Program-made: the position numbers and the translations under genes
NCBI GenBank assembly: GCA_021816765.1
Contig: JAKAXB010000005.1
Coordinates: forward strand, 1-64,000
From: Natronospirales bacterium
Lineage (GTDB): Bacteria > Pseudomonadota > Gammaproteobacteria > Natronospirales > REEB76
Length of the DNA stretch: 64,000 nucleotides
Direction of reading: 5' to 3'
Part shown: piece after piece, positions 36,880-42,465 of the stretch
Numbering within the stretch: the first letter of the stretch is position 1
Layout of the letters: each line of letters starts with the position of its first letter
Notes under the pieces: model-generated
What the model was told of the DNA's origin: nothing
The model's input: the letters and a program-made list of their open reading frames with translations, nothing else
The model's database searches: none

Positions 36880-37512
36880 ATGCTCGCCAAACTGATCGCG
36901 CTTGTCGCCGGTTTCATCATCGCTACCATCTCCACGCTGGGCTATGGCGGTATCGTGCTGCTCATGGCCATTGAGAGCGCCTGCATCCCGCTGCCGTCGG
37001 AAATCATCCTGCCGTTCTCCGGGTACCTGGTGTTCCGTGGGGAACTTACCCTGTGGCTGGTGGCGGTGGCGGGCGCAGTGGGCTGCGTTCTGGGCTCGCT
37101 GCTGGCGTACTGGGTGGGCGCATGGGGCGGACGGCCACTGGTGGAGAAATACGGCCGCTATATACTGGTATCCCGCCATGACTTGGATTTGGCAGACCGC
37201 TGGTTCGCCCGTCGCGGTGACATCATCATTCTCATCGGCCGGCTGTTGCCTCTGGTCCGCACCTTTATTGCCTTCCCGGCGGGGGTGGCGCGCATGCCCC
37301 TGGTCAAGTTCATCCTGTATACCTTCGTTGGCTCGCTGATCTGGTGTTGGGCGCTCGCCTGGGTGGGTTTGCGGCTCGGCCAGCACTGGGACACTCTCGG
37401 ACCCTGGTTCCACCGCTTTGATGCGCTCATCGTGATCCTCATCCTGCTGGGCGCCGCGTGGTATGTGTGGCGCCACCTGCATAACCTGCGGCGCCCGCCC
37501 GCCTCGGGTTGA
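36880..37512 (+). CDS. DedA family membrane protein
   Basis: The 210-residue inner-membrane protein has the DedA signatures ESACIPLPSEIILPFSGYL and GRLLPLVRTFIAFPAGVARM and four to six hydrophobic segments. Family members are thought to move lipid carriers across the membrane and support proton-motive-force balance. ATG 36880 has GAGGG just upstream. It lies 7 bases after kup, so the two are likely co-transcribed. Its TGA stop is inside a small hairpin (TGACAGG-CTA-CCTGTCA, 37510-37526). Confidence 0.92.
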   Translation: MLAKLIALVAGFIIATISTLGYGGIVLLMAIESACIPLPSEIILPFSGYLVFRGELTLWLVAVAGAVGCVLGSLLAYWVGAWGGRPLVEKYGRYILVSRHDLDLADRWFARRGDIIILIGRLLPLVRTFIAFPAGVARMPLVKFILYTFVGSLIWCWALAWVGLRLGQHWDTLGPWFHRFDALIVILILLGAAWYVWRHLHNLRRPPASG

Positions 37513-37570
37513 CAGGCTACCTGTCAGAGTCAATAATGCTCCCCAGCGCCGATTTGATACTCAGCTTGCG

Positions 37571-37651
37571 GGCGCTTAATAAATACGGCTAAAGCGGGCT
37601 CTGACGAACCTGCTCTAGCGCCTACCGGGATAAACGCTGAGCGGGTTTTTT
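37571..37651 (+). terminator. Terminator after kup-dedA with an overlapping alternative fold
   Basis: AACCTGCTCTAGCG (37607-37620) pairs with CGCTGAGCGGGTT (37635-37647), giving a 13-bp stem with one bulge, followed by six T. An alternative fold uses part of the same arm: GGCGCT (37571-37576) with AGCGCC (37617-37622), enclosing AGCGGG/CCTGCT (37593-37598 with 37609-37614). The two folds exclude each other, as in attenuators, although the stem may simply end the kup-dedA transcript. Confidence 0.7.
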
Positions 37652-37668
37652 GTTGCCTGAAATACGCC

Positions 37669-37808
37669 TGTCTCCACTGGAGTCAGTGCAGCGTAACAGG
37701 AGAACAAAACGCAACGCCGTCTAACAGATCCGCCGAATCAAGCACTTGCCTGCTTGATTGGCAGGCGATGCGCCCCTGCCAAGTGACAACTTGCAAGGCG
37801 ATACGGCG
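37669..37808 (+). promoter_or_regulatory. Structured leader RNA candidate upstream of metF
   Basis: A closing stem CGCCGT/ACGGCG (37715-37720 with 37803-37808) encloses three consecutive hairpins: AATCAAGCA/TGCTTGATT (37736-37759), GGCAGG/CCTGCC (37760-37780) and CAAGT/ACTTG (37780-37793). Just upstream, CCTGT/ACAGG (37669-37700) encloses CTCC/GGAG. This looks like a four-way junction ending 32 bases before the metF ATG. It does not show the conserved cores of the SAM-I, SAM-II, SAH or cobalamin riboswitches as I know them. Stems were found by eye only. Confidence 0.45.
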
Positions 37809-37840
37809 CACACCGGCTGCCAAAGCGTCAGGAGCAGAAT

Positions 37841-38779
37841 ATGAATCCGCTTTCCACCGTCTGGGACCGTAGCGCGTTCCCCGCGCAGCCCGCGGTATCC
37901 TTCGAGTTCTTTCCACCAAGCACGCCGGAGATGCAGCATAAGCTCTGGCAGGCGCTCAAGCGTCTTGCAGTGTTATCACCGCGCTTCGTGTCGGTGACCT
38001 ATGGCGCCGGCGGCTCCACCCGCGAGCGCACCCATGACACGGTGGTGGCCATCCGGCGGGAGACGGGATTGCGTCCCGCCGCGCATCTCACCTGCGTAGG
38101 GGCGAGCAAGACCGAGATCGAATCTATCGCGCGCCGCTACTGGCACGCCGGCATCCGTCATGTGGTCGCCCTGCGCGGCGATCCACCGGAAGGCGGGGGG
38201 CATTTCACGCCGCATGCGCGCGGTTATACCTACGCGGCGGAGCTGGTGACGGGCCTGAAGCGCGTGGCGGATTTCGAAATCAGTGTGGCCGCGCATCCTG
38301 AAGTGCATCCCGATGCGCTCTCGCCCCAGGCGGACCTGGAAAATCTCAAGCGCAAACAGGATGCGGGCGCAGCCCGCGCCATTACCCAATTTTTCTTCGA
38401 CGTGGATGTGTTTCTGCGCTTCCGTGACGCCGCCGCGGCCGCCGCGGTCAGCATGCCGTTGGTACCGGGCATCCTGCCGGTCATGAACTTCCAGCAGGTA
38501 CAGAAATTCAGTGCCCGCTGCGGCGCCAGCGTGCCGCTATGGCTCGCGAAATTCTTTGATGGCCTGGACCAGGATCCGGAAACGCGCAAACTGGTAGCAG
38601 CCCACGTGGCCGGTGAACAGTGTCGCCGGCTGCAAGCCGAGGGCGTGCACGAATTCCACTTCTATACCCTGAATCGTCCGGAACTCACGCGCGCCATCTG
38701 CCATCTGCTCGGCATCCGTGCAAGCGAGCGGAATCTTGAGGATGACGCGTCGCGGGGCAGCGCCGTAGCCGGTAGCTGA
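37841..38779 (+). CDS. metF: Methylenetetrahydrofolate reductase
   Basis: MetF reduces 5,10-methylene-THF to 5-methyl-THF, the methyl donor for MetH. It is a 312-residue FAD-binding TIM barrel. [13 protein letters not shown] holds the catalytic Glu, [13 protein letters not shown] the next strand, and [10 protein letters not shown] the folate-binding Asp loop. [10 protein letters not shown] and the QFFFDVD segment follow. It has GGAG ahead of the ATG and its stop overlaps the metH start (TGATG), so the two steps of methionine synthesis are co-expressed. Confidence 0.96.
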
Positions 38780-41700
38780 TGCATTCCATGTCCTGTAAAA
38801 ATATTCTCGACGCGCTACTCAAGAAACGCATCCTGCTCCTGGATGGAGCCATGGGTACCATGATCCAGGGTTACCAGCTTCCGGAGCAGGCATTCCGCGG
38901 CGAGCGCTTCAGAAACCACCCGCGCGATCTCAAAGGCAACAACGACCTGCTGGTGCTTACCCGGCCGCAGGTGGTCGCGGAAATCCAGCAGGCGTATCTC
39001 GACGCCGGTGCGGACATTATCGAGACCAATACCTTCAACTCCACCGCCATTTCCCAGTCGGACTACGGTACCGAATCGCTGGTTTACGAGCTGAACCGGG
39101 AAGCCGCACGGCTTGCCAGGCAGCTGACGCAGAAAACCACCGCGCGCACGCCGGACAAACCGCGATTTGTGGCCGGCATCCTCGGGCCCACCAGCCGTAC
39201 CGCCTCCCTGTCACCGGATGTGAACGACCCCGGCTTCCGCAATGTCAACTTTGACGAGTTGCGGACGACCTATGCCGAAGCCATACGCGGCCTGCTGGAC
39301 GGCGGCGCCGACCTGCTCATGGTGGAAACCGTGTTTGATACGCTCAACTGCAAGGCAGCGCTGTTCGCCATTGAGGAGCATTTCGAAAAGATCGGCACGC
39401 GGGTACCCGTGATGATCTCCGCCACCATCACCGACCTGAGTGGCCGTACCCTGTCTGGACAGACGCCGGAAGCCTTCTGGAACTCGGTACGGCACGTGCG
39501 GCCTTTCAGTGTCGGCCTCAACTGTGCCCTGGGCGCCGAGCAGCTGCGTCCCTACGTGGAAGAGCTGTCCAATCTCGCTGACTGCCATGTGAGCGCCCAT
39601 CCGAATGCAGGGTTGCCCAACGCCTTCGGCGGTTACGATGAGACACCGGAACATATGGCGCGGCTCATTGATGAATGGGCTGGAAGCGGTTTCATCAACA
39701 TCGTGGGCGGCTGCTGCGGCACTACTCCGGCGCATATCCGGGCACTGGCGGAGGTAGTGGCGAGACATGAACCACGGCAGGTACCCCGCATCCAACCGCA
39801 ATGCCGGCTGAGTGGATTCGAAGCCCTCAATATCGGGCCCGAAAGTCTGTTCGTGAATGTAGGCGAGCGCACCAATGTCACCGGCTCGGCCAAATTCAAG
39901 AAGTTGATTCTTGATGGCGATTACGAGACGGCGTTGGACGTGGCGCGCGAGCAGGTGAGGAGCGGCGCGCAGATGATTGACGTCAATATGGATGAGGGCA
40001 TGCTGGATGGGCAGGCCGCCATGGTGCGCTTCCTGAGCCTCGCAGCCTGTGAGCCGGACATTGCCCGCGTACCAGTGATGATTGACTCCTCCCGCTGGGA
40101 GATCATCGAGGCGGCACTGAAATGCCTGCAGGGCAAGTGCGTCATCAATTCCATCAGCCTCAAGGAAGGAGAAGAGAAATTCCTGCAACAGGCGAAGCTG
40201 GCGCGCCGCTATGGCGCCGCCGTAGTGGTCATGGCCTTCGACGAGCAGGGCCAGGCGGATACCCTGGCGCGGCGCGTGGCGGTGTGCGAACGTGCCTATC
40301 AACTGCTTACGCAGAAAGCCGGCTTGCCGGCGGAAGACATCATCTTTGACCCCAACATCTTTGCCGTCGGCACCGGTATCGAGGCGCATGCCAACTACGC
40401 CGTGGATTACATCCAGGCGGTGGAGAAAATCAAGGCACAGTTGCCGCAGGTGCTCATCAGCGGCGGCGTGAGCAACGTGTCGTTTTCGTTCCGCGGCAAC
40501 AACCAGGTGCGCGAAGCCATGCACGCGGCTTTCCTGTACCGCGCCATTCGCGCCGGTATGGATATGGGCATCGTCAATGCCGGTCAACTGGCGGTGTATG
40601 AGGAAATTCCCAAGGACCTGCTGCAACGTGTGGAAGACGTGCTTCTTAACCGCCGGCCGGATGCCGCCGAGCGGCTGGTGAACTTCGCGGAAACCCTTGA
40701 GCAGGGCGGCAGGAAGCGCGAAACCGACTTCACCTGGCGCACCGCACCGGTACGGGAACGGCTGATGCACGCCCTGGTGCAGGGCATCACCGACTATATT
40801 GAAGAGGATACGGAAGAAGCGCGCCGACAGGCCGAGCGCCCTCTGGACGTCATCGAAGGGCCGCTCATGGACGGCATGAACGTGGTGGGCGACCTGTTCG
40901 GCGCCGGCAAAATGTTCCTGCCGCAAGTGGTGAAATCCGCCCGTGTGATGAAGAAAGCCGTGGCCCACCTGATTCCTCATATAGAGGCGCAGAAGGGTTC
41001 TGGCAGCCGGGCGAAGGGCAGGATATTGCTGGCCACGGTCAAGGGTGACGTGCATGACATCGGCAAGAATATCGTCGGCGTGGTGCTTGCCTGCAATAAT
41101 TACGAGATCATGGATCTGGGCGTGATGGTGCCGGCGCAGAAGATACTTGACACTGCCAGCGCTGAGAAAGTGGACATCATCGGCTTATCCGGTCTCATCA
41201 CGCCGTCCCTGGATGAGATGGCCCATGTGGCCAGGGAGATGCAACGCGGTGGTTTTACCATCCCGCTGCTGATCGGCGGCGCCACCACCTCGCGCGCGCA
41301 CACGGCTGTGAAGATCGCGCCCCATTATTCAGGTCCGGCAATCTACGTGAAGGATGCCTCCCGCGCAGTAGGCGTGGCCACGAGCCTGTTGGGCGGCGGC
41401 GAAGCAGCCTTTGTGGAGGCCGTCAAGCGGGAATATGACGAGGTACGCGTGCAGCACGCGGGCCGCGAGGACCACACGAAATGGCTTACCCTGGAACGGG
41501 CACGCGACAATTGCACCCCCATCGCATGGCAAGGATACACACCGTGCAAACCGCGTGCTCTCGGTGTGGAAGTGTTCAACGAGTATCCACTGGAGGATAT
41601 CCGGCAATATGTTGACTGGACGCCGTTCTTCCATGTGTGGCAACTAAAGGCGAGCTACCCGAGGATTCTGGACGACGCGGAGAAGGGCGATGCGGCGCGC

Positions 41701-42465
41701 AAACTGTTCGCCGACGCGCAAGCGATGCTGGAGCGTATCATCGCGGAGAAATGGCTGCGGGCCAGTGCCGTGTATGGCCTGTTTCCGGCCAACACCGTGA
41801 ATGGTGATGATATTGACGTATTCCGCGACGCCAACCGCGATGAAAAACTGATCACCTTTCATTTCCTGCGCCAGCAGCAGGAAAAACCGCCCGGTAAGCC
41901 CAACCAGTGCCTGGTGGACTTCGTGGCACCCCATGCGCAAGGTATCGAGGATTATCTCGGCGCGTTCGCCGTGACCACGGGTCTCGGCATCGAGGAGCCC
42001 CTGCAGCGCTTCAGCGCCGACAACGACGATTACAGCGCCATTCTGCTCAAGTCACTGGCGGACCGCCTGGCGGAAGCCTTCGCCGAACTGCTGCACGCAC
42101 GCGTGCGCAGGGAATTCTGGGGGTATTCCTCGGATGAGCATCTCGACAACGCGGCGCTGATCCAGGAGCAATATAATGGTATCCGCCCGGCACCCGGCTA
42201 TCCCGCCTGCCCGGAGCATACCGAGAAGGGTGGCATCTGGGAACTCCTGGATGCGGAACGCCGCACCGGCATCAGGCTCACGGAGCACTATGCCATGTGG
42301 CCGGCGGCGGCGGTGAGCGGCTTCTATTTTTCACATCCCCAGTCCCGCTATTTTGCCGTGGGCAAGATCAATCGCGACCAGGTGGCGGACTACGCGCGTC
42401 GCAAGGGTATGGATGTCTCCACCGCCGAGCGCTGGCTCGCCCCGAACCTGGGATATGCACCCTGA
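38779..42465 (+). CDS. metH: Cobalamin-dependent methionine synthase
   Basis: MetH transfers the methyl group from 5-methyl-THF to homocysteine through methylcobalamin. The 1228 residues carry all four modules: the homocysteine domain ([11 protein letters not shown], zinc Cys in GLNCALGAE and [11 protein letters not shown]) and the pterin-binding domain from about residue 355 ([16 protein letters not shown]). The B12 domain has DVHDIGKN with the cobalt-ligating His759, as in E. coli, and the C-terminal reactivation domain binds SAM ([12 protein letters not shown]). B12 dependence implies cobalamin uptake or synthesis elsewhere in the genome. Confidence 0.97.

What the first reader, a model, noticed from the sequence alone, without database searches (positions are those of the whole stretch)
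37571..37840. Densely structured leader in front of metF-metH that fits no riboswitch core I know
Within 270 bases there are a terminator with a mutually exclusive alternative fold (37571-37651), a nested hairpin (37669-37700), and a stem CGCCGT/ACGGCG enclosing three adjoining perfect hairpins (37715-37808) that ends 32 bases before metF. The arrangement resembles a multi-branch aptamer controlling the methionine-cycle operon. Conserved cores of SAM-I, SAM-II, SAH and cobalamin riboswitches were looked for and not seen. Pairing by eye in GC-rich DNA overestimates structure, and the first terminator may simply serve kup-dedA.
Basis: partly seen in the sequence, partly recalled or inferred. Interest (0 to 1): 0.6.

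Follow-up and report, generated by a model that had tools for sequence, protein, structure and literature searches.

The report
SAM-II riboswitch with terminator before metF-metH

Summary
The leader is real, but it is not a new aptamer. A full-length SAM-II aptamer (Rfam RF00521) lies at 37545-37598, just behind a strong promoter (TTGACA-17-AATAAT, 37509-37537). Rfam scores it 33.4 bits, just under its cut-off of 36, but it is the only good match in the genome (next 15.3). RF00521 also rings in 106 of 274 genomes of the class and in none of 14 controls. The core occurs before metF in ten of eleven genomes of the genus. P1 shows compensatory changes.

The aptamer's 3' strand GCTAAAGCGGG can pair with CCTGCTCTAGC, which alternatively forms the 5' arm of an intrinsic terminator; this three-strand switch recurs through the class. 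Predicted: SAM present, transcription stops; SAM scarce, metF-metH is read.

The 'three hairpins' (37715-37808) contain a fragment of a dispersed hairpin repeat (about five copies in this genome), absent here in relatives. It interrupts a probable, decayed second SAM-II-like aptamer at the metF ribosome-binding site. Such tandem pairs are already published. New member of a known kind.

The parts
37509..37537 (+). sigma-70-type promoter TTGACA-17-AATAAT; its -35 overlaps the dedA stop codon
   Evidence: 11 of 12 matches; 0.4 such sites expected in the region; similar promoters in genus-mates; promoter-like site before 22 of 79 SAM-II elements against 19 of 4000 random windows
37545..37550 (+). 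SAM-II P1 stem, 5' strand (AGCGCC)
37551..37556 (+). SAM-II L1 GAUUUG (third strand of the binding-site triplex in the known structures)
   Evidence: invariant in 48 sequences
37560..37567 (+). 5' strand of the P2/P2a pseudoknot (CUC-A-GCUU)
   Evidence: pair counts
37571..37576 (+).
37588..37598 (+). strand A, GCTAAAGCGGG: 3' strand of the aptamer pseudoknot and 5' strand of the antiterminator
37609..37619 (+). strand B, CCTGCTCTAGC: pairs with A (antiterminator) or with C (terminator)
   Evidence: recurs in the class
37607..37651 (+). intrinsic terminator: arms 37607-37620 and 37635-37647 (strand C), then T6 (37646-37651)
   Evidence: -20.4 kcal/mol; terminator pair varies U-G 37, C-G 8, U-A 6 across relatives
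37658..37700 (+). nested hairpin, shared in position only with the nearest genus-mate; probably spacer
   Evidence: absent from other relatives
37715..37834 (+). probable decayed second SAM-II-like aptamer at the ribosome-binding site: P1' 37715-37718/37797-37800, P2a' 37784-37787/37827-37830, core GCCAAAG 37819-37825
   Evidence: weak here (E 0.11 in 196 bases); homologous elements in relatives
   Evidence: site without the insertion in L010 and L019
37830..37834 (+). Shine-Dalgarno AGGAG of metF
37841..38779 (+). metF, methylenetetrahydrofolate reductase
   Evidence: TIGR00676 above its cut-off
38779..42465 (+). metH, cobalamin-dependent methionine synthase
   Evidence: TIGR02082 above its cut-off

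Best explanation
The metF-metH leader carries a SAM-II riboswitch with an intrinsic-terminator expression platform. Transcription starts a few bases before P1 (inferred from the promoter). When SAM is plentiful it stabilises the P1 stem and the P2/P2a pseudoknot, which holds strand A (37588-37598); strand B (37609-37619) is then free to pair with strand C (37635-37647) and the terminator stops transcription before metF. When SAM is scarce, A pairs with B, the terminator cannot form, and metF-metH is transcribed. The sequence, the pairings and their conservation are shown; SAM binding and the switching itself are inferred from the family. Further down, at the metF ribosome-binding site, lies what is most likely a degenerate second SAM-II-like aptamer, broken in this genome by a repeat and by a U-to-C change in the core; it is probably inactive here (inferred).
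For: RF00521 full-length match, 33.4 bits, E 6.4e-6, the only good match in the genome, next 15.3 bits. RF00521 in 106 of 274 genomes of the class, 24 above cut-off, none of 14 controls. The core is conserved in relatives across the class, before metZ/metY-type, metF, metK and metN-type genes. P1 cells 98% paired with two-sided changes at 4 of 6 pairs; P1 plus pseudoknot 91.4% paired against 24-56% when slid. A-B and B-C pairing in the window. In 59 of 79 relatives a U-run terminator overlaps the antiterminator strand; in 40 of 79 the A-B duplex reaches the top 1% of shuffles. Terminator pair U-G 37, C-G 8, U-A 6. Promoter next to P1. Literature: a promoter a few bases before P1 and terminators are usual for SAM-II (PMC1273637); the S. 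meliloti metZ SAM-II is predicted to terminate on SAM binding and makes a short RNA (PMC9373788).
Against: The score is 2.6 bits under Rfam's cut-off. P2a in the window is only 3 pairs, one of them G-U. The terminator has a longer loop than the simple scan accepts, so one search lists none. Vienna cannot fold the pseudoknot, so the ligand-bound state was not computed. No binding or expression data exist for this organism. Model R1 was trained partly on this sequence, so its 79 bits are not independent. The A-B conservation is partly forced, because A is fixed by the aptamer.
Confidence: 0.93

Rival explanations
1. A new multi-branch aptamer class is formed by the hairpins at 37669-37808 and senses a methionine-cycle metabolite.
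For: Dense predicted pairing and closeness to metF.
Against: The hairpins are a dispersed repeat, missing at this place in G001 and G011; several genus-mates with the same operon lack the whole stretch; no covarying multi-branch unit found; a known aptamer explains the leader.
Confidence: 0.02
2. The first terminator simply ends kup-dedA and there is no regulation.
For: It lies downstream of dedA in the same direction.
Against: A near-consensus promoter and a class-wide conserved aptamer lie between dedA and the terminator; the same unit precedes metZ-, metK- and metN-type genes elsewhere.
Confidence: 0.03
3. The second SAM-II-like element at the ribosome-binding site still works here, so metF has double control: termination first, then translation block.
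For: P1' (CGCC/GGCG) and P2a' (TGAC/GTCA, abutting AGGAG) can still pair; tandem pairs are clear in G263, G165 and isolate 48_S62.
Against: A 59-base repeat sits between P1' and L1; the U that pairs with the SAM adenine is C here (GCCAAAG; role of that U in SAM-V from PMC6061858); model score is only E 0.11 in 196 bases; G001 has also lost the core.
Confidence: 0.08
4. The aptamer is a specificity variant that binds another ligand (for example SAH).
For: It is sub-cut-off for Rfam, and variant classes of other SAM riboswitches exist (PMC10853860).
Against: All positions invariant in the 48-sequence alignment are kept; the gene context is methionine and SAM synthesis.
Confidence: 0.03

Closest known systems
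SAM-II riboswitch (Rfam RF00521, SAM_alpha, metA motif)
   Same: P1 hairpin plus pseudoknot, GAUUUG, CUUGC and GCUAAAG core, promoter just upstream, terminator downstream, methionine genes
   Different: Shorter P2a (3 pairs) and other outer letters, so it scores just under Rfam's cut-off; it controls metF-metH, whereas a survey of about 200 genomes found SAM_alpha only in Rhizobiales and Rhodobacterales, core target metY (PMC4239095)
Tandem SAM-II/SAM-II and SAM-II/SAM-V 'bi-mechanism' riboswitches (PMC9481103)
   Same: First aptamer with a terminator, second element at the ribosome-binding site
   Different: Here the second unit is highly diverged and interrupted by a repeat, probably dead
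SAM-V riboswitch (RF01826)
   Same: Sits at the Shine-Dalgarno; the relatives' second elements have a hairpin after P1 as SAM-V does
   Different: RF01826 finds nothing at the place in six genomes
metXZ element of beta-proteobacteria (PMC4239095) and Rfam RF02424
   Same: Pseudoknot plus terminator before metX/metZ; RF02424 matches SAM-II elements on the opposite strand
   Different: Published as a separate element and as an sRNA; identity with SAM-II for metXZ is a lead, not tested

Membership tests
SAM-II riboswitch (RF00521) | Covariance-model match over the whole aptamer | tested here: met
   Full-length match 1-79, 33.4 bits, E 6.4e-6; under the curated 36 bits, but the sole genome-wide match and supported by relatives up to 48 bits
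SAM-II riboswitch (RF00521) | P1 stem with compensatory change | tested here: met
   98.3% of cells paired; 4 of 6 pairs with two-sided changes
SAM-II riboswitch (RF00521) | P2 pseudoknot between the loop and the 3' strand | tested here: met
   Inner pairs 90% and outer pairs 78% of cells paired, two outer pairs with two-sided changes; far above slid controls. In the window P2a is C-G, U-G, C-G
SAM-II riboswitch (RF00521) | Conserved core nucleotides GAUUUG, CUUGC, GCUAAAG | tested here: met
   All present
SAM-II riboswitch (RF00521) | Methionine/SAM genes downstream, expression platform present | tested here: met
   metF-metH; terminator and antiterminator
SAM-II riboswitch (RF00521) | Selective SAM binding and SAM-dependent gene control | not testable with these tools
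   Needs in-line probing or transcription assay
SAM-V riboswitch (RF01826), for the second element | Covariance-model match at the ribosome-binding site | tested here: not met
   No match at the place in G000, G001, G002, G005, G010, G011 up to E 10
Tandem SAM-II pair | Second SAM-II aptamer downstream of the first | tested here: inconclusive
   Clear in G263, G165 and G290/48_S62 (genome-wide E 6.5e-6, 2.8e-4, 1.3e-3); weak in genus-mates (local E 1e-4 to 0.012); 0.11 in the window
   Repeat insertion, not conserved at this place
Cobalamin, SAM-I, SAH riboswitches | Rfam match in the leader | tested here: not met
   None at gathering score in the window nor up to E 10 in 37480-37900

The most novel reading that the evidence does not exclude
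Probability: 0.45. Interest if true: 0.4.

Novelty: new member of a known kind. Interest (0 to 1): 0.28.

Why it matters
It settles the leader as a known switch, and shows that SAM-II is common in Gammaproteobacteria (in the GTDB sense) although most copies fall just under Rfam's cut-off: 106 of 274 sampled genomes, only 24 above cut-off. A published survey of about 200 proteobacterial genomes had SAM_alpha in two alphaproteobacterial orders only. That fills a gap in how methionine synthesis is regulated in these lineages and argues for a revised Rfam model. The broken second aptamer offers a comparison of single and double control within one genus.

Tried and rejected
Rfam at gathering scores finds no riboswitch in the window; only the permissive search of the short stretch showed SAM-II. 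The multi-branch aptamer idea was dropped once the hairpins proved to be a repeat. SAM-V for the second element: no match. The RF02424 (Bp2_287) hit on the minus strand was examined and is the antisense of SAM-II, not an sRNA lead here. An exact-pattern count of the repeat found few copies; the structure model found more. Shared motif AAGTGACAACTTGC: not a dispersed repeat, as forward counts do not exceed the control. A spermidine-type specificity variant was considered; those are SAM-I variants. My first regex for the second element missed it and was corrected.

Full report
WHAT IS THERE. metF (37841-38779) and metH (38779-42465) are confirmed; upstream lie kup and a DedA-family gene (undecaprenyl-phosphate-transporter type) ending at 37512. 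A TTGACA-17-AATAAT promoter overlaps the dedA stop.

THE APTAMER. A permissive Rfam search of 37480-37900 gives one strong match: RF00521 (SAM-II), 37536-37613, full length, 33.4 bits, E 6.4e-6. It is under the curated 36 bits, which is why the window-wide scan at gathering scores is silent. Genome-wide it is the sole good match (next 15.3 bits).

RELATIVES. DNA search finds the core 37545-37597 in the genus, the order and further in the class. RF00521 rings in 106 of 274 genomes of the class, 24 above cut-off, 0 of 14 controls. A model from 48 aligned members (A1; R1) finds one element in ten of eleven genomes of the genus and in most of the order. R1 is trained partly on these sequences, so its scores are not independent. 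P1 and the pseudoknot are 91.4% paired against 24-56% for slid versions, with two-sided changes in six pairs. Downstream genes cluster as metZ/metY-type (43), metF (17, enriched by sampling), metK (6) and single others including metN-type (gene names other than metF and metH by sequence reading).

THE SWITCH. Strand A (37588-37598, GCTAAAGCGGG) is the aptamer's 3' strand. It is complementary to B (37609-37619, CCTGCTCTAGC; hairpin -15.9 kcal/mol), and B is complementary to C (37635-37647), followed by T6 (-20.4 kcal/mol). The same three strands recur in the class, typically GCTAAAGCG / CCTGCTTTAGC / GCTGA-GCGGGTTTTT. In 59 of 79 relatives a terminator overlaps B, and in 40 the A-B duplex is in the top 1% of shuffles. 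One terminator pair occurs as U-G, C-G and U-A. The pairings are shown; that SAM chooses between them is inferred from the family (PMC1273637, PMC9373788).

THE HAIRPINS NEARER metF. G006, G008 and G009 start metF 15-25 bases after the terminator, so this part is dispensable. The stretch 37721-37779 is absent in G001 and G011, where the flanks adjoin. It belongs to a repeat: six copies align with 28 invariant columns (A3), and a model finds about five copies in this genome, two of them new and strong (C35, C38, about 60 bits), and up to about 14 in G011 (some rows are the same copy read on the other strand).

A SECOND, DECAYED APTAMER. Flanks of the insertion match a motif in G010, G002, G005, G011 and G001 at the same place: (A)AGTGACAACTTGC ... 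GCTAAAGCGTCAGGAG, directly before the metF start. It resembles a second SAM-II: a short P1' with changing sequence (best single-genome p 0.006; combined 0.0009, but the genomes are related), P2a' TGAC/GTCA abutting the Shine-Dalgarno, and a hairpin between P1' and GCTAAAG. R1 scores these weakly (local E 1.2e-4, 0.008, 0.012; the latter two rest on the 3' half) and the window at 0.11. Three other lineages have clear tandem seconds: G263 (all five of its SAM-II elements), G165, and isolate 48_S62, where it precedes metF. In the window the core reads GCCAAAG; the replaced U corresponds, by alignment, to the one that pairs with SAM's adenine in SAM-V (PMC6061858). I therefore think it is a relic (about 0.45 for the whole story).

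WHAT IS KNOWN. SAM-II is published (PMC1273637), as are tandem SAM-II pairs mixing terminator and ribosome-site control (44 examples, PMC9481103). Earlier surveys had SAM-II as sporadic in gamma-proteobacteria (PMC2258182) or only in Rhizobiales and Rhodobacterales (PMC4239095). So this is a new member of a known kind.

Noticed in passing
Rfam RF02424 (Bp2_287) matches, L199-L218: All 27 places found with RF02424, a 'Burkholderia sRNA' family, read as SAM-II elements on the opposite strand: 25 overlap RF00521 matches and 2 show the core by reading (L206, L214). The family looks modelled on the wrong strand of a SAM-II riboswitch with terminator.
   Followed up: partly
window 37723-37780; L196, L195, L193, L194, L002: Dispersed repeat with several successive hairpins (core TCCGNCGAATCAAGCA...TGCTTGATTCGCG, then GCGGTGC...GCACCGC with compensatory changes), about five copies in this genome and more in G011; no known family recognised.
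   Followed up: partly
L038 (G263): One genome with five tandem SAM-II doublets, each second unit about 100 bases after the first.
   Followed up: no
L014 1400-1480, L039, L162: Another repeat (GCGTTGCGGTGC..TGCTCATTTACT..AAGTAAACT..) follows the SAM-II terminator in three genomes of different genera.
   Followed up: no
L058 (G013): A SAM-II element stands upstream of a LysR-type, CysB-like gene (identified by eye), an unusual target.
   Followed up: no
L078, L125: Two alphaproteobacterial MAGs have SAM-II nearly identical to the gammaproteobacterial form before metF, which may reflect transfer or a shared ancestral form.
   Followed up: no
PMC4239095, metXZ element: The 'novel' beta-proteobacterial metXZ RNA (pseudoknot plus terminator before metX/metZ) may itself be SAM-II; its alignment was not available here.
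   Followed up: no
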